A DNA stretch of 11,774 nucleotides. Source: Pseudomonadota bacterium. Lineage in GTDB: Bacteria; Pseudomonadota; Gammaproteobacteria; Steroidobacterales; Steroidobacteraceae. The notes beneath the pieces were generated by a model. That model searched no databases. It was not told where the DNA came from and saw nothing but the letters and a program-made list of their open reading frames with translations. A program made the translations under genes and the position numbers. Position 1 is the first letter of the stretch, and the number at the start of each line of letters is the position of its first letter. The stretch covers positions 1 through 11,774 of the forward strand of contig JAJXYU010000324.1 in NCBI GenBank assembly GCA_021780395.1. Reading direction: 5' to 3'. Positions 2,524 through 11,774 of this stretch are shown here, one piece after another.

Positions 2524-2551
2524 TTGACGCGCGGACGGGCCGGCATATACC
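2524..2551 (+). promoter_or_regulatory. Sigma-70-type promoter of the TPR-CHAT operon
   Basis: TTGACG (2524-2529, 5 of 6 matches to the -35 consensus), a 16-base spacer, and TATACC (2546-2551, 4 of 6 matches to the -10 consensus). Transcription would start near 2558, leaving a leader of about 20 bases before the ATG at 2581. The TTG of the -35 box happens to be in frame with the CHAT gene, which makes it look like an upstream start codon; the promoter reading argues against that start. It looks like a housekeeping promoter rather than an ECF one, which would carry a GAAC-like -35. Confidence 0.55.
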
Positions 2552-2580
2552 CTCAGGCTGCGCCGCGTAGAACGTCGATC

Positions 2581-5500
2581 ATGCCCAAGAGAAGCTTCGG
2601 GCGCGGGATCTCGATGCGCTCGATCGGGGTGATGCTCGCGTCGTCAACGCTGTCGGTCTCACTCGCGGTCGCACGCACGCCTGCGGTCACCGCCGCGCGT
2701 GCCTTGCGACCCGGCGACACGGTGAACTACCGGGTCGACGCCCGCCGTCGCGCCGAATTCGCCGTCACCGTGCCCGCGAACCAGACGGTGCAGGTGCGCA
2801 TCACGCAGATGCGGCATTTCACGCAGCTCGAATTGCAGGCGCCGCGCGGCGCGGCGCCCGAGCCGCGCTTCTGCGACAGCGGCAAGGGCGCGCTGATCCG
2901 CGCGACGCTGGTCACCGCGGCCGGCGGGACGTATCGCCTGACGCTCACACCCTATGATCCGCACCAAGCGGCCAGCGGCCGGATCCATGTCTCGGCGCCG
3001 CGTGCGCCCACGGCCGTCGATCGCGAGCGTGCTATGGCCGAGCAGGACCTCGCGCGCGCGGAGTGGGCGCGCCACCGCGGCGCGCCCGCCAGCTGGCCGG
3101 GGGCGCTCGCGGACTATCGCGAGGCACGCGGTCTCTCGCGACGGATCGGCGACGAGCGGCTGCTGCGGGCGACCCTGGTCGGCGAGGCGCGCCTCGATAT
3201 GTTCGAGCGCGGCGACTATGCGGCCGCGGTACCGCTCGCGCGCGCGGCGGTCACGCTGCCCGATCGCGGCGACCAGCCGGGCGAGGCGCTCGCCTGGAAG
3301 ACGCTCTCGTCGGCGGATGCCTACCAGGCTCGCTATCCAGCGGCGATCCAGGCTGCGCGGCAGGCCTTGCGGCTGTATCGACGCACCGGCGACCGGTACT
3401 GGCAGGACGTCGTCCTCGGCAATCTCGCGTACACCGAGTACGAGACCGGTCGCACCGCACTGGCGCTGCGCACGGCCAACCAGTCACTCGCGATCGCCCG
3501 GGCCATCGGGGATGCATTCGGGGTGGACTTCGACCTCGAGGCGATTGCGGAGTTTCACCGCGGACGCGGAGAGTTCGATCAAGCGTTTGCCGATTTCCGG
3601 CGCGCACTCGATGCGCTGCGCCGGCAGCCCTACCCGGATCGCGAGGCGGCGGTGTGGAACGGCCTCGGCGAACTGTACGAATCGCTCGGCGAGCCGGCCG
3701 ATGCGCGCGCCGCGCTCGCGAAGGCGCTGCGGATCGCCGATGCGGCGCACGACGCCGCGACGCAGCTCGAGGTGCTGGTCAATCTCGCGGATGCGAACCG
3801 CGACCAGGGCGATGCGCACGCGGCATTGGTCGCCGACCTCGCGGGCGTGCGCCGCGCGGCGGCGCTCGGCTTGCCGCGCGAGCAGTCCTTCCTGCTGCTC
3901 GGGCTCGGCCGTGACTACGCCGCGCTCGGCGAGCAGCGGCGTGCGCGCGCGGCGTATCGGCGCGCGATCGCGCTCGCGGAAAAGATCGGTCAATTCGACA
4001 GCGAGGCGGCCGCCTGGCTCGCGCTCGGCGACCTGCAGGCGGTCGAGCGGGACCCGCGCGCCGCACGGACCGACTACCGGCGCGCACTGGCGCTGTGGCG
4101 CCGGCAATCCGCGCGGCTCGGCATGGCGAGCGCCGAGGGCAGCCTCGCCCGTCTCGACTGGCGCCAACACGCGCTCGATCGGGCGCAACGGCATATCGAT
4201 CGGGCCGTGAATCTGATCGGATCGGTCCGGTCGACGCTCGCGACGAAACAACTGCGCACCGCCTACTTCGCGTCCGAGCACGCGTACTACGACCTCGGCG
4301 TGCGCATCCTGATGGCACTGCGGCAGGCGCATCCCGGGGCGGGTGATGCGCGCGCGGCACTTCGCCTCGCGGAACGCGCGCGGGCGCGCACGCTCCTCGA
4401 TGCGTTGAGCGGCGCCGCCCGCGTCAGCCCGACGCTGCTGCCCGCGCGCCTGGCGCGCGCGATGCGTCGCACCGATGCCGAACTCGATGCGGCCTATGCG
4501 GATTCCAACGCAGCACTGCAGGATCCCGCCGCAAATCCCGTACGTCTCGCATCGCTGCGACGGCGGATCGACGCGCTGCGCGAGGAGCGGGGCCGGCTCG
4601 AGGCGCTGGCGCGCTCGAGCAGCCGCCGGTACGCGGCGTTCGCGGATGCGCGGCCGATGCCGCTGCGCGAGCTGCAGCAGCACCTGCTCGGCCCCCGCGA
4701 CGCGGTGCTCGAGTATTGGATCGGTGCGCGTCGCGGGGTGGCCTGGCTGATCCGCGACCGCCGGATCACGACCCTGCCGCTCGCCGGGGCCCGGCAGCTC
4801 GCGCCCGAGGTGCGGGCGTTTCGGGAAGCGCTGACCGCGCGTTCCCGAACACCGCCCGGCGAGAGCCTCGAACGTCGCAACGCACGCATCGCCCGGGCCG
4901 ATGCTCGTGCCGCCGCCCTCGCCGGTCGGCTGGGCGCGCAGCTCCTGCCCACCCTCCGGCGGTTGCAGGGCATCGATACGCTCTACGTGGTGCCCGACGG
5001 CCCGTTGTTCGGCGTCCCGTTCGCGGCGCTGCGGCCCGCGGACGACCCGCAGGCGCTGATCGAATCCATCGCCGTCGTCGAGGAGCCGTCCGCAGCGGTC
5101 ATGGCCCAGCTGGCGCGGGATCCCGTGGCGGACCGCGCCGCGCCGGATCGAGGACCGCCATCGATCGCGGTGTTCGCCGACCCGGTGTACGGCGCCGGCG
5201 ACCCACGGATCCTCGCGCGCACGCCCGCGACGACCCCGCGCATCGCCTCGCTCCGCTGGGCGGCGGCCGCGCGGCTTGCGCATCTGCCACGGCTGCCGGC
5301 TTCCGCCCGCGAAGCGCGCGCGATCGCAGGCTTCGACGAAGCCGGGACCACGCTTCACATCGGATTCGGCGCCACGGTGCAGGCAGTGCGCCAGACGCCG
5401 TGGTCGCATTTCACCGTAGCGCATTTCGCCGTCCACACCTTGCTCGACGCCGATCATCCTGCGTTGTCCGGGCTGGTGTTCACCCGCTTTCACCGCGATG

Positions 5501-5868
5501 GCGCACCGGAACCGGACGTGCTGTGGCTGCGCGACATCTACGCGCTCGACATGCCGGTCGACCTGGTGGTACTCAGCAGTTGCGATACCCTCGGCGGACG
5601 CGACGTGCCGGGCGAGGGTCTGGTGGGGTTGTTCCGGGCGTTCCTGATGGCGGGCGCTCATGCGGTGCTCGGCACGCTCTGGAGCGTCGAGGACCGGGCC
5701 ACCGATCGGCTGATGCGGTCCTTCTACGCCGGACTCCTGCCGGGACGGCTCGCACCGGCACGAGCGCTGCAGCGGGCGCAGCAAGCATTCATCCGCTCCA
5801 CGCACGATTCGGCGCCGTATTACTGGGCAGGGTTCTCGATCGAAGGCATGGGGGCGCCGCTGCGGTGA
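2581..5868 (+). CDS. Exported TPR-CHAT protein, putative caspase/separase-like cysteine protease
   Basis: Protein of 1095 residues. Order of parts: a signal-peptide-like start (RSFGR basic, hydrophobic about 14-31, possible cut after AVA at 31); a beta-rich domain about 40-140 resembling pre-peptidase-type sandwiches; about eight tetratricopeptide repeats about 150-545 (patterns such as AAWLALGDLQAVERDPRAA); a helical linker; and a C-terminal CHAT domain about 694-1095. The CHAT core strands are visible (LYVVPDGPLFGVPFAAL). The caspase-like dyad is intact: His952 in HFAVHT and Cys1001 in VVLSSCDTLGG, followed by GLVGLFRAFLMAGAHAVLGTLW, typical of the family. CHAT proteases cleave specific protein partners, and TPRs usually bind them. 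ATG 2581 is chosen because the ORF's upstream TTG (2524) is part of the promoter; the ribosome binding site is weak, and ATG 2614 is an alternative. The stop overlaps the sigma-factor start by 4 bases, so the two are translationally coupled. The likely partner is the membrane protein at 6519-7259. The signal peptide is modest, so a cytoplasmic location is not excluded. Confidence 0.88.
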   Translation: MPKRSFGRGISMRSIGVMLASSTLSVSLAVARTPAVTAARALRPGDTVNYRVDARRRAEFAVTVPANQTVQVRITQMRHFTQLELQAPRGAAPEPRFCDSGKGALIRATLVTAAGGTYRLTLTPYDPHQAASGRIHVSAPRAPTAVDRERAMAEQDLARAEWARHRGAPASWPGALADYREARGLSRRIGDERLLRATLVGEARLDMFERGDYAAAVPLARAAVTLPDRGDQPGEALAWKTLSSADAYQARYPAAIQAARQALRLYRRTGDRYWQDVVLGNLAYTEYETGRTALALRTANQSLAIARAIGDAFGVDFDLEAIAEFHRGRGEFDQAFADFRRALDALRRQPYPDREAAVWNGLGELYESLGEPADARAALAKALRIADAAHDAATQLEVLVNLADANRDQGDAHAALVADLAGVRRAAALGLPREQSFLLLGLGRDYAALGEQRRARAAYRRAIALAEKIGQFDSEAAAWLALGDLQAVERDPRAARTDYRRALALWRRQSARLGMASAEGSLARLDWRQHALDRAQRHIDRAVNLIGSVRSTLATKQLRTAYFASEHAYYDLGVRILMALRQAHPGAGDARAALRLAERARARTLLDALSGAARVSPTLLPARLARAMRRTDAELDAAYADSNAALQDPAANPVRLASLRRRIDALREERGRLEALARSSSRRYAAFADARPMPLRELQQHLLGPRDAVLEYWIGARRGVAWLIRDRRITTLPLAGARQLAPEVRAFREALTARSRTPPGESLERRNARIARADARAAALAGRLGAQLLPTLRRLQGIDTLYVVPDGPLFGVPFAALRPADDPQALIESIAVVEEPSAAVMAQLARDPVADRAAPDRGPPSIAVFADPVYGAGDPRILARTPATTPRIASLRWAAAARLAHLPRLPASAREARAIAGFDEAGTTLHIGFGATVQAVRQTPWSHFTVAHFAVHTLLDADHPALSGLVFTRFHRDGAPEPDVLWLRDIYALDMPVDLVVLSSCDTLGGRDVPGEGLVGLFRAFLMAGAHAVLGTLWSVEDRATDRLMRSFYAGLLPGRLAPARALQRAQQAFIRSTHDSAPYYWAGFSIEGMGAPLR

Positions 5869-6518
5869 ACGATTCGAGCCCACGGGACGCGACCGCGCGA
5901 TGGCAGCTCGACGAGGACGCGCTGCGCGCGTTGCTGCGCATGCTCGATGTCGACCCGACGCGGGCGGCGCACGAGTATGAGCGGCTCCGGGCGCGTCTGG
6001 CGCGCTATTTCTCGCTGCACGGCGTGCCGCACGCGCTCGAGGCCACGGACGAGGCGTTCAACCGCATCGCCAGGCGCCTGAGCGAAGGGGAATCGGTGTT
6101 GAACGTCGAGGCGTATCTCGCGGGGATCGCCCGGCTGGTGATGCTCGAGGAGCGCCGCAAACTCGAGCGCGAGCGCGCGGCGCTCGTGCGCCTGGTCGGA
6201 CCCGAAGCGAAGGAGGCGCCAGCGCCGGACGATCCATCGCCACCGGAGGAGGTGCTGCGCGCGGCATTCGAGGCCGGGCTCGCCGAGCTGCCGCGGGACG
6301 CGCGCGAGATGCTGGCCGACTATTACCGCGGGGACGGCGGCGAGCGGATGCGGGCGCGGGAAGCGATGGCCCGCCGCCTCGGGCTGTCGATCCACGCCCT
6401 GCGCAACCGGATGCTGCGCTTGCGCCAGCGGCTGGAACGGACCGTGCACCGCCAGTTGGACGCCGAGGCGCGTGACGTCGCGCCCCGCGCGGACACTAAC
6501 CCACAGGAGGATCGCTAG
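5865..6518 (+). CDS. ECF-type RNA polymerase sigma factor
   Basis: Sigma-70 family protein of 217 residues that would direct RNA polymerase to a specific promoter set. Region 2 spans about 36-100: LARYFSLHG, then ATDEAFNRIARRLSEG and NVEAYLAGIARLVMLEERRK, the core-binding and -10-melting part. An acidic, proline-rich linker about 108-128 follows. Region 4 spans about 129-196 (ELPRDAREML, YYRGDG) with a helix-turn-helix about 164-190 (MARRLGLSIHALRNRMLRLRQRL) for -35 recognition. Region 3 is absent, as in ECF sigmas. The start is GTG at 5865, overlapping the TGA of the CHAT gene (GTGA). The reading frame stays open upstream to 4716, but that stretch only shadows the CHAT gene and has no sigma-like content. 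No strong ribosome binding site precedes it, so it depends on coupling to CHAT translation. Its 3' end carries the ribosome binding site of the next gene. The ECF subgroup cannot be assigned by eye. Confidence 0.88.
   Translation: MNDSSPRDATARWQLDEDALRALLRMLDVDPTRAAHEYERLRARLARYFSLHGVPHALEATDEAFNRIARRLSEGESVLNVEAYLAGIARLVMLEERRKLERERAALVRLVGPEAKEAPAPDDPSPPEEVLRAAFEAGLAELPRDAREMLADYYRGDGGERMRAREAMARRLGLSIHALRNRMLRLRQRLERTVHRQLDAEARDVAPRADTNPQEDR
6505..6510 (+). promoter_or_regulatory. Consensus ribosome binding site AGGAGG inside the sigma gene
   Basis: AGGAGG lies in the last codons of the sigma gene, 8 bases before the ATG at 6519; the sigma stop TAG (6516-6518) touches that ATG. The inhibitor-like gene thus has a near-ideal signal while the sigma gene has none, which would favour excess inhibitor over sigma. 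Confidence 0.8.
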
Positions 6519-7259
6519 ATGCGGGTGCCGGGCGAGATCTCGCGCGAACGGTTCCTCGCCTACCTGCTCGGGGAACTACCGGCCGAGGAACTGTCGGCGC
6601 TCGATCGACGGATCCTCGCCGACGAGGAATTCGCCGCCGCGCTCGACGCGCTGCGGACCGACTGCCTGGACGATTACGCGCTCGGCCGCGGTTCCGGCGC
6701 GGAACGCGACCGGATCGCCCGCGCGCTGCATCTTGCCGCGACCGACGATCGGTCGGTCGCACTCGCCCGCGCATGGCACCGTGCGCTCGGGTTCCGAGAT
6801 CGCCGCGCCGCCGGCCGCGGCCGATGGATCTGGACGCTCGCGCTCGCGGCGAGTGCGGTGCTCGCGGTCGGCATCGGCTGGATGCATCCCTGGGAATCGA
6901 CGCCGGTGAACCCGGGGACGGGGCACGGTCACGGGTTCGTGCTGCTGCTCCAGCCCCAGGTATTGCGTGGCGCGACCGCGTCGCGCCCGCTGGTCGTCCC
7001 GACAAGCTCTGCCGATCTCGAGGTGCAGATCGTCGTCCGCGGATCGGCGCCCCGCTACACCGTGCGGGTGCGGGGTCCGGCCGGATGGTCGACTGACGAG
7101 GCGCTCGCGGTCCGCGCCGCGGGCGCATCACGCTACGTGCAGTTCGCGATTCCGCGCGCGCGGATCGCCGCGGGTAGGTATCGCTTCGAGGTGCTGCAAC
7201 AGCGGGGGGATCGCCAGATCCTCGAGGATCGCTATGCCGTGACCCTCGCGCTGCGCTGA
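6519..7259 (+). CDS. Single-pass membrane anti-sigma-factor-like protein
   Basis: Protein of 246 residues, probably the inhibitor and sensor partner of the adjacent sigma factor. The N-terminal about 100 residues are helical (RERFLAYLLGELPAEEL, ILADEEFAAALDALRTDCLDDY), matching the LL-G-L-----A-Ex-hxxDxE pattern of cytoplasmic anti-sigma domains. The zinc-binding H-x3-C-x2-C of classical ZAS domains is absent; the only Cys is C49, with H71 and H87 nearby. One membrane segment spans about 103-122 (WIWTLALAASAVLAVGIGWM), preceded by RRAAGRGR, so the N-terminus is predicted inside. The C-terminal about 120 residues are beta-rich (FVLLLQPQVLRG, LEVQIVVRG, YTVRVRGPAGW, GRYRFEVLQ), consistent with one Ig-like periplasmic sensory domain. 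Sigma and anti-sigma genes abut, the usual pairing. No direct evidence of binding is possible from sequence. The alternative is a membrane scaffold unrelated to sigma control. Confidence 0.75.
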   Translation: MRVPGEISRERFLAYLLGELPAEELSALDRRILADEEFAAALDALRTDCLDDYALGRGSGAERDRIARALHLAATDDRSVALARAWHRALGFRDRRAAGRGRWIWTLALAASAVLAVGIGWMHPWESTPVNPGTGHGHGFVLLLQPQVLRGATASRPLVVPTSSADLEVQIVVRGSAPRYTVRVRGPAGWSTDEALAVRAAGASRYVQFAIPRARIAAGRYRFEVLQQRGDRQILEDRYAVTLALR

Positions 7260-7338: not shown

Positions 7339-10300
7339 ATGATGCGGACGCGATCCTGCGCGAACCTTGGGCGGCAGCGCCGCGCGCCGCTCGCCGGGGT
7401 CCTTTTGTTCCTCCTCGCCTGCGTCGGGCCGGCGACCGGGCGGGCGGTCAACCCCACCGCCGGACCGGCAGCGCGCCTCGTGCGCATACCCGGCAGCGTA
7501 CCGGCGGTGCTCACCCGCGCGACCCCGATCGCCACCCCCGCCGAGATCACGCGCGAGGCGAAAGCGCCGATCACCGTCACGCTCGTGCTCAAGCGCGACC
7601 ACGAGCAGGCGTTCGAGCGGTATCTGGCGCAGCTGTATCGGCCGGGGTCGCCGGTGTATCGGCAGTTTCTCAGTCAACGGCAGATCGCCGCGAGGTTCGG
7701 TCCGTCTCGGGCGGTGTATCGACGGGTGGTCGCGTACTTGCGGGCGGCCGGTTTCACGCTCGCCCAGAGTTCGACGAATCGTCTGACGGTGACCGCACGG
7801 GGCAGCCGGTCGCAGGCGCAGCGCGCGTTCGACGTCGCGATTCGCGACTATCGGATCGGGCGCCGGCGTTTTTACGCGAACAGCACCGATCCGGCGCTGC
7901 CGGCGGAGCTGGCCGCGCACGTGCAGGCGATTGCGGGGCTTTCCGATCTGGCGCGTCCGTGGCGGGCCGGGGCGAACCGGCTCGGCGGCGGCGCGGCGAA
8001 CCAATTTATTCGGAAGCAAGCCAAATCGGCGGCGGGGAAATACGCCTGGAGCCAGATACCTTTACAAGGTCAGTTATTGATCAAGTGTTCGATTCCGGGC
8101 CTCGCCAAAGCGATCAACAGTCTGTCGCTCTCGGCACCCGGAATAGCACCCGGATTAGGGGACGCCATCCTGGCGGCGACCGCGCCGGTCGCGTGCGAGC
8201 TGAACATGATCGCCGCCTATGCGGTCGGTCAGGATCCATTCTCCAGCCATTGGCTGCCGCGACCTGGGCAGCGGCGGCTGCAGACGGCGAGCGCAGTCGC
8301 GCCGAGCGCGGCGGTGCCGGGCACGGGTCAGACGATCGGCTTGCTGGAGTTCGACAATTTCCACCCGTCGGACGTGCAGAACTACCTGAATCTGACCGGA
8401 GCCGGTAGCGAGTTCAGCCAGCTCTCCGAGGTCGACGTTGACGGCGGGGCCGGCGCACCGGGTCCGAGCGAGTCGGAGGTACTGCTGGATGCCGACATCG
8501 CGCTCTCGCTCGCACCGGGAGCGAAGGTGGTCGTCTACGACGGCTCGTTTCACGGAGCTGGCAGTTTTCAGGCGATATTCAACGCGATGATCAACGGCGG
8601 GGTGACCGTGATCTCGAACAGCTGGGCGGCCTGCGAGAACCAGGAATCGACCGCGGACGTACAGAGCCTGAACAGCGTACTGGCGAATGCCGCCGCCGCC
8701 GGGATCACGGTGGTCAGCGGCTCCGGGGACACCGGCAGCACCTGCCTCGACGGGGCCGCGAACACGGTCGCGGTGCCCGCCGACTCACCGAACGTGACCA
8801 CGGTGGGTGGTACGACGGCGACGCCGATGCTGGCGGGCGCCTACTACAACGAGCAGTGGTGGGACGGCACGACGCAGTCGCCACCGACCGGCCAAGGCGG
8901 TTTCGGGGTCAGCAAGTTCTTCAGCGTCCCCAGCTATCAGACCTCGTTCACCTCGGCAAGCGGCCGGTCGGTGCCCGACGTGGTCGCACCGGCCGATCCG
9001 GCCGAGGGCTGGACGCTGTGTCAGGCGGACCAGGGCGGCTGTCCCGCGCCGTACCTGTACGGTGGCACGAGCGCGGCGGCACCGGAGTTCGCGGCGATCG
9101 TCGCGGTGCTGAACCAGGAGTTGGGCCGCAACCTGGGGTTCCTGAACCCCACGTTGTACGCGCTCGCGGGGACGAGCGCATTCCATTCGCCGACCTCGAT
9201 GGGCAGTGACTTTGCGCACGTCGGGCTCGGCTCACCGAACGTCAATGAGCTGCGCCGGCTGCTCGCCAAGGGAACCACCGGGTCCGTCGATCTGGCGAAC
9301 TCGGGAATCATCGTGCCACCGGTCCCGGTGACTGCGGACGGCACGAGCGCCGCGCCGGTGGCGGTGATGACGCTGGATGCGAATTTCTACACTGTGCCCG
9401 GTCAGGCCGTGACCCTGAGCGCGAACAGCGGTTCGCATGCGCAGATCGACACGGTGCGCGGGACGACGGACATCGACAGCGGCGAGGCACTGTTCGCGGT
9501 CACGGACACGGTGCCGGAAACGGTGACCTTGACCGCCTCCACCGCGGCCGGTGCGATCCCCGGCAGCGTCACGGTGACCTTCGTGTCGCCGCCGGCCGCG
9601 TCGGGCGGGATCAGCGCGTCGCCGACCACGGTGACCGCAGACGGTAGCAGCACGACGACGATCACGGTCACGCTGAAGGATGCGAACGGCAACCCCTCGC
9701 CCGGCAAGACCGTGGGGCTTGCGCAGGGCAATGGCGCATCGCAGATCTCGGCGGCGAGCGCGACGACGGATGCGACCGGCACGGTCAACTTCACCGCGAC
9801 CGACGCCCTGGCCGAAACCGTGACCTACACCGCGACCGACCTCACCGACGGCAACCTGCCGGTACCGGGCAGTGCGCAGGTGCAATTCACTAACGCCACC
9901 GCCGCGCCGCCATGCAGTGTCGGCCTGGGCACCGCCGCGAACGGCTACGCCGTATCGACCTTCGCGAGCGGCTTTGTCTACAGCAGCAGTTGCATCGGCC
10001 CGATCGGCCTCGCGTTCGATCCGCAAGGAAATCTTCTCGTGGGCAACTACACCACCGGCCTGCTGTACCGCTTCAGCCCACAGGGTGGCAGCGCTGATCC
10101 CGGTCACGTGATCGGGGATCCCTACAACAGTGCGGGGCTCGAAGGCCTCGTATTCGGCGCGGACGGCTCGCTGTACAGCACGGGTCGATATGGCGGCGCC
10201 TGCAGCATTCTCAACGCCGTCGCCCAGATCGACCCGCAGACCGGGCAGGACGTCCGCAATCTGAACGCTCCCGGCTGTCCGACCGGAATAGCGGTCGATC

Positions 10301-11774
10301 CACTGAGCGGCGATCTGTTCATCTCGTCGGGTTACGGCGGCATCTACCGCTTGTCGAACTACGCGAGCGGCGCCGGGACGCTGACCAACTACTCGAACGT
10401 GGCAGCGGATGGCATGACGTTCGCGCAGGACGGCACCCTGTATGCCAGCGACAACGGCAATGGCGTCGTCTACTCGATCACCGGCACCAACAGTCCGACA
10501 CCTGGCGTTGCAACACCGATCGCCTCGGTGCAGGGCACCGACGGGATCACGCTGATCACCAATCCAGCCAACCCGGCGCTGCCCTACGTGGTCGTCAACT
10601 CGAACAATGGCGACATCGTGAAGATCGACCAGACGACCTCGCCGGCAACGCTGACGACGATCTACAGCGGTGGGTCACGGGGTGACTTCGTCACCGTCGG
10701 ACCGGATGCCTGCATGTACGCCACCCAGACTGATCGGGTGATCAAGATCACCAACGCCGACGGGAGCTGCTCGTTCCAGCCGGTCGCGGTGGCGCCGGCG
10801 GTCGCGCTGACACCGGCGGTGATTGCGCCGGATCCGACCCAAGGCGGAACGCTCACCCTGACCGCGCAGCTGCAGAACATCGCGAGTCCCGCCGGGATGC
10901 CGGTGCAACTGCTCGTGACCGGCGCGAACCCGAACGTGTACGCGGGCTCGAGCGACGCGAACGGTCGGGTGAGCTTCACGCTCGCCGGCGTGGAGTCCGG
11001 CGAGGACACCGCGACCGCGGTGTTCGCCAACAACGGGACCCCGTTGCCATCCAACAACGTGCAGGTGCACTGGCTCGCAGGGCCGCATACCACGTTCATC
11101 GCGATGAACCAGAACCCGGGATCCGGGGCGGCGGGCACGCCGATCACGGTGACCGGCACGCTGCAGGACGTGTCGGCGAGTCCGCCGGCGGCGCTGTCCT
11201 CGCAGTTGGTCGAGTTCACGCTCGACGGCCAGAGCTGCAGCGCGGTGACCAACGGCGCGGGTACCGCCAGTTGCAGCCTCACGCCCTCCACCCCCGGAAC
11301 TGGAACCCTGAATGCGGCGTTCGCGGGCAACTCGCAGTACCTCGCGAGCGCGGCGATCCGGCGGGTGGACGTCACCACCGCGCCGCCGACGGTGTCGATC
11401 AGCGTCAACCCCACCACGATCGCGGTCGGCGGCAGTGCGACGCTCACCTGGTCGAGCAGCAATGCGACGTCTTGCACCGCGAGTGGTGCGTGGAGCGGCA
11501 CTCAATCCACGTCGGGGAGCCAGACGGTGTCGTCGAGCATGGCCGGGAGCGACACCTACACGCTCACCTGCATGGGTTCGGGCGGCAGTGCGAGCGCCTC
11601 GGCGGTGCTTGCAGCGACGCTGGTGAGCGTCACCGTCGCGGCGCACTCCGGCGGCGGCGGGTCCCTGTCGGACGCGGTGCTCGCGCTGCTCGGCGCGGCG
11701 CTCGCGCTGCGCGTGCTGGCGGGTCGTGCGGCCGGCGCGCGCGGCCGGCTGCTGATGGGACTACTGCTCGCGCT
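7339..11774 (+). CDS. Large multidomain S53 sedolisin (pseudomonalisin/kumamolisin-like), C-terminus beyond window
   Basis: Secreted acid-type serine-carboxyl peptidase precursor; 1478 codons are visible and no stop is reached. An export signal (about 1-35) is followed by a pro-kumamolisin activation domain about 75-203 and a linker. The catalytic domain starts about 326 (GTGQTIGLLEF) and ends about 655. Its active site is complete: E380 and D384 (EVLLD), oxyanion Asp464 (SGSGDTGS) and Ser578 (GGTSAAAP). The calcium region keeps D624 (GSDFAHVGLGSPN), but the usual DVT stretch reads SPT. After this come two invasin/Big_1-like domains (about 658-750, 755-850; the second has TVTADGSSTTTITVTLKD), a beta-propeller-like segment (about 867-1150), three more Ig-like domains (about 1155-1245, 1250-1350, 1352-1430), GGGG (1438-1441) and a hydrophobic anchor. 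Start: ATG 7339 or 7342, with a G-rich stretch (7328-7335) as weak ribosome binding site. It lies 79 bases after the anti-sigma gene; no clear promoter or terminator is seen between. Confidence 0.92.
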   Translation, partial: MMRTRSCANLGRQRRAPLAGVLLFLLACVGPATGRAVNPTAGPAARLVRIPGSVPAVLTRATPIATPAEITREAKAPITVTLVLKRDHEQAFERYLAQLYRPGSPVYRQFLSQRQIAARFGPSRAVYRRVVAYLRAAGFTLAQSSTNRLTVTARGSRSQAQRAFDVAIRDYRIGRRRFYANSTDPALPAELAAHVQAIAGLSDLARPWRAGANRLGGGAANQFIRKQAKSAAGKYAWSQIPLQGQLLIKCSIPGLAKAINSLSLSAPGIAPGLGDAILAATAPVACELNMIAAYAVGQDPFSSHWLPRPGQRRLQTASAVAPSAAVPGTGQTIGLLEFDNFHPSDVQNYLNLTGAGSEFSQLSEVDVDGGAGAPGPSESEVLLDADIALSLAPGAKVVVYDGSFHGAGSFQAIFNAMINGGVTVISNSWAACENQESTADVQSLNSVLANAAAAGITVVSGSGDTGSTCLDGAANTVAVPADSPNVTTVGGTTATPMLAGAYYNEQWWDGTTQSPPTGQGGFGVSKFFSVPSYQTSFTSASGRSVPDVVAPADPAEGWTLCQADQGGCPAPYLYGGTSAAAPEFAAIVAVLNQELGRNLGFLNPTLYALAGTSAFHSPTSMGSDFAHVGLGSPNVNELRRLLAKGTTGSVDLANSGIIVPPVPVTADGTSAAPVAVMTLDANFYTVPGQAVTLSANSGSHAQIDTVRGTTDIDSGEALFAVTDTVPETVTLTASTAAGAIPGSVTVTFVSPPAASGGISASPTTVTADGSSTTTITVTLKDANGNPSPGKTVGLAQGNGASQISAASATTDATGTVNFTATDALAETVTYTATDLTDGNLPVPGSAQVQFTNATAAPPCSVGLGTAANGYAVSTFASGFVYSSSCIGPIGLAFDPQGNLLVGNYTTGLLYRFSPQGGSADPGHVIGDPYNSAGLEGLVFGADGSLYSTGRYGGACSILNAVAQIDPQTGQDVRNLNAPGCPTGIAVDPLSGDLFISSGYGGIYRLSNYASGAGTLTNYSNVAADGMTFAQDGTLYASDNGNGVVYSITGTNSPTPGVATPIASVQGTDGITLITNPANPALPYVVVNSNNGDIVKIDQTTSPATLTTIYSGGSRGDFVTVGPDACMYATQTDRVIKITNADGSCSFQPVAVAPAVALTPAVIAPDPTQGGTLTLTAQLQNIASPAGMPVQLLVTGANPNVYAGSSDANGRVSFTLAGVESGEDTATAVFANNGTPLPSNNVQVHWLAGPHTTFIAMNQNPGSGAAGTPITVTGTLQDVSASPPAALSSQLVEFTLDGQSCSAVTNGAGTASCSLTPSTPGTGTLNAAFAGNSQYLASAAIRRVDVTTAPPTVSISVNPTTIAVGGSATLTWSSSNATSCTASGAWSGTQSTSGSQTVSSSMAGSDTYTLTCMGSGGSASASAVLAATLVSVTVAAHSGGGGSLSDAVLALLGAALALRVLAGRAAGARGRLLMGLLLA
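8001..8100 (+). other. Low-GC patch with rare codons inside the sedolisin gene
   Basis: Fifty of these 100 bases are G or C, against clearly higher values on both sides (68 of the next 100). Codons otherwise avoided in the window cluster here: ATA, CCT, TTA twice, TTG, CAA twice, ATT twice. The patch encodes the linker between pro-domain and catalytic domain, the part that is least conserved and usually cut during maturation. The frame is intact. It may be a recent insertion, a recombination junction, or a slow-translation zone between two folding units. Confidence 0.5.
11650..11730 (+). other. C-terminal sorting signal: GGGGS plus hydrophobic segment
   Basis: Residues 1438-1441 are four glycines followed by SLSD, a hydrophobic run about 1446-1457 (AVLALLGAALAL) and arginines at 1458 and 1463. 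This is the pattern of the GlyGly-CTERM signal, which in Gram-negative bacteria is recognised by rhombosortase and is common on secreted proteases. Unlike most examples, the chain goes on past the arginines (GRAAGARGRLLMGLL) to the window edge, so the true end is not visible. Confidence 0.5.

What the first reader, a model, noticed from the sequence alone, without database searches (positions are those of the whole stretch)
2581..7259. TPR-CHAT protease, sigma factor and membrane anti-sigma in one coupled operon: a Craspase-like switch without CRISPR
Seen: three genes with a 4-base overlap (GTGA) and an abutting TAG/ATG, encoding a TPR-CHAT protein with intact His952/Cys1001, an ECF-type sigma, and a one-pass membrane protein with an anti-sigma-like N-terminus. 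Known: in type III-E CRISPR systems the TPR-CHAT protease Csx29 cleaves Csx30, which otherwise inhibits the sigma factor RpoE. Inference: the same logic (TPR-CHAT protease cuts a sigma inhibitor to free sigma) may operate here as a CRISPR-independent envelope-stress pathway. CHAT proteins beside sigma/anti-sigma pairs may already be known in other genomes, so novelty lies in the mechanism more than in the parts.
Basis: partly seen in the sequence, partly recalled or inferred. Interest (0 to 1): 0.82.

Follow-up and report, generated by a model that had tools for sequence, protein, structure and literature searches.

The report
Exported caspase-like protease with sigma switch
A little-known bacterium carries, in one operon, a caspase-like protease that appears to be exported, a gene-switching sigma factor and its membrane-bound inhibitor; many relatives keep the same parts together, which suggests that the protease helps to control the switch, but this has not been tested here.

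Summary
In detail: TPR-CHAT (2581-5868), ECF-like sigma (5865-6518) and one-pass anti-sigma (6519-7259) overlap or abut, with H952/C1001 intact. The linkage is real. Of 47 related TPR-CHAT loci from 396 genomes of the same order, 36 have an ECF sigma in the fetched stretch and 33 an anti-sigma; random regions gave 1 of 19 and 0 of 19. Ten of the eleven misses lie near contig ends. In one genome (G323) CHAT and sigma/anti-sigma sit on different contigs, yet share a TTGACG-N16-TATACG-like element. Some relatives add a secreted S53 or S8 protease. The Craspase reading needs correcting. CHAT proteins often carry export signals (34 of 40 by a loose rule, 24 of 40 by a strict one), so the protease probably faces the periplasmic part of the anti-sigma, as DegS faces RseA. 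The family keeps a separase-like Asp (D1038) that the aligned Csx29 sequences lack. All 42 linked anti-sigmas keep one Arg (R150), about 30 residues past the membrane segment. I propose a periplasmic site-1 protease of caspase type, cutting near R150. Cleavage and binding are untested, and 9 of 10 relatives without a neighbouring CHAT also keep this Arg. CHAT beside ECF sigmas is already in print (ECF54, type III-E).

The parts
2524..2553 (+). Promoter-like element TTGACG-N16-TATACC-CT upstream of CHAT
   Evidence: Same element and 16-nt spacing upstream of CHAT in L074, L075, L072 and L077 and upstream of the unlinked sigma in L073; the first half is absent at L091. The pattern was derived from these sites.
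2581..5868 (+). Probably exported TPR-CHAT protein (1095 aa): signal-peptide-like N-terminus, beta-sandwich about 40-137, TPRs about 145-548, CHAT domain 780-1087; H952/C1001 dyad; D1038 at W+4
   Evidence: Pfam; alignment; AF2 pLDDT 83; fold search; residues
5865..6518 (+). ECF-like sigma factor (GTG start, 217 aa)
   Evidence: TIGR02989 2.1e-10, below cut-off; family alignment A5 with Sigma70_r2 in 9 of 16 members
6519..7259 (+). Membrane anti-sigma (246 aa): helical N-terminal part, one TM helix (104-121), beta-sandwich predicted to be periplasmic; invariant R150 (window 6966-6968)
   Evidence: NF052375 weak, in 12 of 18 family members; AF2; A6; R150
7341..11772 (+). Secreted S53-type protease with pro-kumamolisin domain, Ig-like repeats and a Gly-rich/hydrophobic C-terminus; frame open at the window end; possible fourth operon member
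   Evidence: Pfam; a relative in the same place in L140 (G792), tblastn 42% over 1058 columns

Best explanation
The genes form one extracytoplasmic sigma-factor switch. Shown by sequence: the sigma, a one-pass anti-sigma and an intact TPR-CHAT protease are encoded together, and this partnership is kept in relatives through rearrangements. Inferred: the anti-sigma holds the sigma at the inner membrane; the TPR-CHAT protein is exported, its TPR and beta-sandwich part senses an envelope signal, and the activated CHAT domain acts as the site-1 protease that cuts the periplasmic part of the anti-sigma, probably in the loop around the invariant R150. RseP-type intramembrane proteolysis and cytoplasmic proteases would then free the sigma. 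The sigma would switch on its own operon through the TTGACG-N16-TATACG-like element, including the secreted S53 protease, which would be the output. That the genes are one functional module is close to certain (about 0.95); that CHAT acts on the anti-sigma is the uncertain step, and the confidence below is for the whole statement (lowered from 0.48 to 0.46 after the export counts were repeated with equal limits).
Against: No contact or cleavage was predicted or measured; no co-folding tool was available. R150 is also kept in 9 of 10 anti-sigma relatives without a neighbouring CHAT, so it may be structural. Weaker relatives of the anti-sigma are common (131 of 396 genomes at 1e-6), and only 3 of 10 such loci that I sampled have a CHAT in the stretch. 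Three of seven stronger loci in genus g3 (L209, L210, L213) have no CHAT within 18 kb. Craspases cut at non-conserved sites (PMC11106740), so a conserved site is not required of a CHAT protease. With equal limits the export signal is enriched about twofold, not universal, and the window's own CHAT misses the rule (hydropathy about 1.5 by my reckoning, threshold 1.7), though the 80% homologue L091 passes. D at W+4 also occurs in 10 of 21 frames from the other CHAT loci. The promoter element also resembles an ordinary sigma-70 promoter.
Confidence: 0.46

Rival explanations
1. CHAT is an output, not the trigger: the sigma/anti-sigma pair answers an unknown signal and drives expression of exported proteases (CHAT, S53 or S8) that act on other envelope or external targets.
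For: The shared element sits before CHAT as well as before the unlinked sigma in G323, so CHAT may be sigma-controlled. A second secreted protease of variable type travels with part of the modules. R150 is conserved also without CHAT.
Against: CHAT is the constant partner in these loci while S8 is variable (11 of 38), though the loci were chosen by CHAT. Among 43 genomes with an anti-sigma match at 1e-30, 37 are in the CHAT list and 4 of the other 6 show a CHAT beside it (that profile was built from CHAT-linked members).
Confidence: 0.28
2. Protease cascade: the S8/S53 enzyme is the site-1 protease of the anti-sigma and CHAT matures or activates it (or the reverse).
For: S53 is the next gene after the anti-sigma in the window and in L140; an S8 gene lies between CHAT and sigma in, among others, L054, L060, L064 and L229.
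Against: tblastn with the window's S53 found a relative in 1 of 60 stretches (L140), and an S8 profile hit 11 of the first 38 loci, so the module exists without them within the stretch seen.
Confidence: 0.13
3. Craspase-like cytoplasmic switch: CHAT cuts the cytoplasmic part of the anti-sigma.
Against: Export signals; no RAMP protein found in the window's own genome; W+4 residue unlike Csx29.
Confidence: 0.07
4. The three genes are neighbours by chance.
For: ECF sigmas are common in bacteria of this kind (general knowledge).
Against: 36 of 47 loci against 1 of 19 control regions, across five families of the order and varied gene orders.
Confidence: 0.02

Closest known systems
ECF54 sigma group (as described in PMC8999054, section 3.3; passage read)
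   Same: ECF sigma with CHAT-domain and subtilase genes in the conserved context; proteolytic control proposed there.
   Different: [quoted passage not shown] here a membrane anti-sigma follows the sigma. ECF54 profiles were not available, so membership could not be tested.
Craspase / type III-E Csx29-Csx30-RpoE (PMC10028731, passages read)
   Same: TPR-CHAT protease, sigma inhibitor and ECF-type sigma; similar fold.
   Different: No CRISPR parts found; CHAT probably exported; inhibitor is a one-pass membrane protein; separase-like Asp at W+4, where the aligned Csx29 sequences have S or P.
DegS/RseP-RseA-RpoE regulated intramembrane proteolysis (described in passages of PMC10028731)
   Same: Membrane anti-sigma, proposed periplasmic protease, site-2 protease encoded in the genome.
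   Different: The proposed site-1 protease is of caspase/separase type, not HtrA (recalled for DegS), and is encoded in the same operon.
CalpL/CalpT/CalpS (PMC11417357, passages read)
   Same: Protease cuts an anti-sigma to free an ECF sigma.
   Different: Lon/SAVED protease activated by cA4, not a CHAT protease.
DdvS/DdvA of Myxococcus xanthus (PMC12288465 and PMC4374960, passages read; the structure papers are not held)
   Same: ECF sigma with transmembrane anti-sigma; the DdvA structure (8rw5) is the second Foldseek match to the TPR-CHAT model, E 2.9e-14.
   Different: A CHAT-domain profile does not list DdvA among PDB sequences, so the likeness may rest on helical repeats only.

Membership tests
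Craspase (type III-E CRISPR) | Cas7-11/gRAMP (RAMP family) and Cas1 in the genome | tested here: not met
   RAMP family 0 of 1 (own genome, 84% complete), Cas1 0 of 6 incomplete genomes; positive controls ring
Craspase (type III-E CRISPR) | CHAT protein scores as Csx29 | tested here: not met
   NF041237 10.1 bits against cut-off 300
Craspase (type III-E CRISPR) | TPR-CHAT fold with His-Cys dyad | tested here: met
Craspase (type III-E CRISPR) | Sigma scores as the III-E sigma | tested here: not met
   NF041236 14.2 bits against cut-off 100
ECF sigma with membrane anti-sigma | Sigma with region 2 and region 4 only | tested here: inconclusive
   P0002 alone is below Pfam cut-offs; r2 in 9 and r4_2 in 3 of 16 family members
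ECF sigma with membrane anti-sigma | Adjacent anti-sigma with helical N-terminal domain, one TM and a periplasmic part | tested here: met
   By prediction; profile A6 matches 3hug_B over 49 residues, E 2.2e-5 (listed as a probable conserved membrane protein, recalled to be the anti-sigma RslA)
ECF sigma with membrane anti-sigma | Anti-sigma binds and inhibits the sigma | not testable with these tools
   No co-folding or assay
Regulated intramembrane proteolysis (DegS/RseP type) | Site-2 protease in the genome | tested here: met
   M50 in 5 of 6 genomes, own genome included
Regulated intramembrane proteolysis (DegS/RseP type) | Site-1 cleavage of the anti-sigma in the periplasm | not testable with these tools
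   Inferred only
ECF54 | CHAT and subtilase genes in the context | tested here: inconclusive
   CHAT by selection; an S8 subtilase in 13 of 47 loci, not in the window, which has the related S53 type instead
ECF54 | No anti-sigma | tested here: not met
   Anti-sigma present
ECF54 | Match to the ECF54 group profile | not testable with these tools
   No ECF group profiles available; the classification paper is not held
DdvS/DdvA | Anti-sigma carries the large repeat domain itself | tested here: not met
   P0003 is 246 aa with a beta-sandwich only; the repeat protein is a separate gene here. That DdvA carries such a domain is inferred from the Foldseek match, as its papers are not held

The most novel reading that the evidence does not exclude
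A caspase/separase-type protease works in the periplasm as the dedicated, operon-encoded site-1 protease of an ECF anti-sigma factor: an Arg-specific CHAT domain (S1 Asp D1038) gated by a peptide- or protein-sensing TPR superhelix cuts the anti-sigma at a conserved juxtamembrane Arg (R150). It would be a CRISPR-free parallel to Craspase on the other side of the membrane, with its CHAT family found in 46 of 396 genomes searched of one order, and distinct from HtrA, Prc and signal-peptidase site-1 enzymes.
Probability: 0.27. Interest if true: 0.86.

Novelty: new variant of a known kind. Interest (0 to 1): 0.63.

Why it matters
If true, caspase-like proteolysis would be an envelope-signalling device in ordinary bacteria, not only a CRISPR-linked tool, and the activator of a group of ECF sigma/anti-sigma pairs would be known. 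It would also suggest a function for exported TPR-CHAT proteins, and the CHAT-subtilase-ECF association noted for ECF54 could be tested with two point changes (C1001 and R150).

Tried and rejected
Rejected: membership in type III-E. Rejected: chance clustering (controls). Lowered: R150 as a CHAT-specific cleavage site, because 9 of 10 relatives without a neighbouring CHAT keep it. Lowered: the export evidence. In one search the CHAT frames were allowed far more candidate starts than the controls; with the same 60-codon limit it is 24 of 40 against 33 of 109, and with a wide limit 34 of 40 against 17 of 46 control genes of 400 aa or more. Lowered: a sigma-specific promoter. The strict pattern is not commoner genome-wide than its reversed control (11 sites against 17 in 12 genomes), a looser one gave 9 sites against 7, the six operon sites match by construction, and the element also resembles sigma-70; no regulon beyond the operon could be seen.

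No diagnostic fold match was found for the anti-sigma: nearly all of the structure matches shown cover only the beta-sandwich (about 130-246), and none stands out. DdvA likeness not resolved: it is the second Foldseek match, but a CHAT-only profile lists only Csx29 and separase in the PDB with better than chance scores. Padloc gave a TPR match (4.6e-17) and otherwise weak ones. No tRNAs in the window. The sigma alone has no PDB sequence match of note.

Limits of the counts: the sigma and anti-sigma profiles were iterated on the CHAT loci themselves, so they favour linked members. Control regions were picked by me at round positions, 20 regions, of which L102 is masked. Related genomes are not independent. 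The 47 loci are the 51 places less the window's own, the second half of the G257 gene, and the second copies of two tandem pairs. Rows dropped before the first count of 38: L002 (same contig as L091), L073 (fetched for its anti-sigma) and L077 (the other half of the G257 CHAT). The other nine were scanned (eight; L018). The 42 frames include L002 and L091, which are one contig. Of the 28 other CHAT places, 20 were fetched.

Full report
Observation. The window holds a TPR-CHAT gene (2581-5868), an ECF-like sigma gene (5865-6518) and a one-pass membrane protein gene (6519-7259), overlapping by GTGA and abutting at TAG/ATG. The CHAT domain is clear (PF12770 E 1.2e-55) and H952 and C1001 are invariant in 22 of 22 homologues. 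The sigma and anti-sigma are weak as single sequences (Sigma70_r2 E 0.01, TIGR02989 E 2.1e-10, NF052375 E 1.2e-4, all below curated cut-offs) but clearer as families (Sigma70_r2 in 9 of 16; NF052375 in 12 of 18). The genome is a 2.68 Mb incomplete assembly (84% complete) with one CHAT match; the nearest named relative is a Steroidobacteraceae assembly with the same CHAT at 79-80% identity.

A fourth gene. The next gene (from about 7341, open at the window end) encodes a pro-kumamolisin (S53-type) protease with Ig-like repeats. In genome G792, of another family of the same class, the order CHAT, sigma, anti-sigma, S53 recurs (L140). No other of the 60 stretches searched gave a relative of this S53 protein. 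An S8 subtilase gene is found in 11 of the first 38 loci and in L228 and L229 of the other nine, so 13 of 47, and in none of the random regions.

Linkage across genomes. A CHAT profile hit 46 of 396 genomes of the order at E 1e-60 or better, in 51 places. Leaving out the window's own place and merging split or tandem genes, these are 47 loci, all fetched. A sigma lies in 33 of the first 38 and an anti-sigma in 30 of 38; with the later nine, 36 of 47 and 33 of 47. Of the eleven without sigma, ten have a contig end within about 2 kb of the CHAT frame (L018, L052, L061, L072, L084, L230, L231, L233, L234, L235); the eleventh, L078, has an anti-sigma. Two of these genomes (G276, G161) carry sigma and anti-sigma on another contig, and the L078 genome (G190) carries a pair elsewhere. 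Where both were found in the first 38 loci, sigma directly precedes anti-sigma in 29 of 29. Gene order varies: sigma downstream, upstream, divergent or convergent to CHAT. The sigma-positive loci come from five families of the order (handles). Twenty random 12-kb regions of the same genomes, one of them masked, gave sigma in 1 and anti-sigma in 0 of 19. Twenty other CHAT loci of the phylum, of 28 places found, gave sigma in 3, one of them the close homologue L140.

Co-occurrence and a split locus. A profile of the close anti-sigmas hit strongly (E 5.5e-36 or better) in six of 396 genomes, the same six that hold close CHAT homologues; the matches in the other eleven genomes are weak. In one of the six, G323, CHAT is on contig C43 and sigma/anti-sigma on C35. 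Both loci carry TTGACG, 16 bases, then a TATACGCT-like box, as do the window (2524-2553), L074, L075 and L077; L091 lacks the first half. The strict pattern occurs 11 times in 12 genomes, six of these at the CHAT or sigma loci, and its reversed control 17 times. The pattern was derived from these loci, so the informative part is the fixed spacing and its presence at both halves of the split locus. It may be a target of this sigma or a sigma-70 promoter. A wider anti-sigma profile, built from CHAT-linked members, hit 43 genomes at 1e-30 or better; 37 of them are in the CHAT list, and of the six others four show a CHAT beside it. At 1e-6 it hits 131 of 396 genomes, so weaker relatives are common; of ten such loci sampled, three have a CHAT in the stretch.

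Compartment. Many CHAT proteins begin with Sec-type or lipoprotein-type signals. By a simple rule of mine (not SignalP), 34 of 40 frames pass if every start before the matched region is allowed and 24 of 40 if only the first 60 codons are. Sigma frames give 0 of 36 and control genes 33 of 109 with 60 codons; control genes of 400 aa or more give 17 of 46 with 250 codons. The window protein itself misses the threshold; its model has a helix at 15-29, in a low-confidence N-terminal stretch before the folded part. The anti-sigma model has N-terminal helices, one helix at 104-121 and a beta-sandwich at 140-245 (mean pLDDT 70.5), and Arg-rich sequence before that helix, so its C-terminal part should be periplasmic (inference). 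A TM-like segment is present in 41 of 42 linked anti-sigmas. CHAT and the periplasmic part of the anti-sigma would thus share a compartment, unlike CHAT and sigma.

Mechanism. The best reading is an extracytoplasmic switch in which the exported CHAT protease is the site-1 enzyme of its anti-sigma, followed by RseP-type cleavage (M50 present in the genome). The gene set, its conservation and the intact active site are shown; export and topology are predicted; cleavage, binding, signal and targets are inferred. The main rival is that CHAT is an output of the sigma.

Known context. PMC8999054 (passage read) records that ECF54 sigmas have carboxypeptidase, subtilase and CHAT genes nearby and proposes proteolytic control without an anti-sigma. 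PMC10028731 (passages read) describes Csx29-Csx30-CASP-sigma, and PMC11417357 (passages read) CalpL/T/S. PMC8195603 (passages read) reports ECF sigma genes in some caspase-containing systems. In the listings I saw no paper whose title or start of abstract describes an exported TPR-CHAT protease acting on an anti-sigma; one search listed 20 of 389 papers and one search listed 10 of 25. The library lacks most subscription journals, and the ECF classification and DdvA papers are not held.

Noticed in passing
window 7341-11772: The S53-type protease ends in a Gly-rich stretch (SGGGGS) and a hydrophobic, Arg-containing tail, like a C-terminal sorting signal (recalled resemblance to GlyGly-CTERM); the frame is open at the window end.
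   Followed up: no
L064 3576-10567 and L079 4738-11676: Two TPR-CHAT genes in tandem in one module, with lipoprotein-like N-termini, next to one S8, one sigma and one anti-sigma.
   Followed up: partly
L072 and L073 (genome G323): CHAT separated from sigma/anti-sigma on different contigs, both with the same promoter-like element; CHAT lies about 280 bases from its contig end.
   Followed up: partly
L054, L055, L057, L058, L064, L071 directly downstream of CHAT: ORFs of about 150-200 aa, not scanned for families, some with a signal-like N-terminus, recur after CHAT.
   Followed up: no
L073 3130-4956 and L075 6369-8249: A 608/626 aa gene without a Pfam match lies next to the module and a bactofilin-like cluster (recognised by eye) in two genomes, divergent from sigma in one and from CHAT in the other.
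   Followed up: no
L218-L221, L224, L225: Second-tier anti-sigma relatives without a CHAT or a match to the sigma profile in the fetched stretch.
   Followed up: partly
L223, L226, L227: Further CHAT genes next to sigma/anti-sigma pairs, found through the anti-sigma and outside the 1e-60 CHAT list.
   Followed up: partly
[not shown]
   Followed up: no
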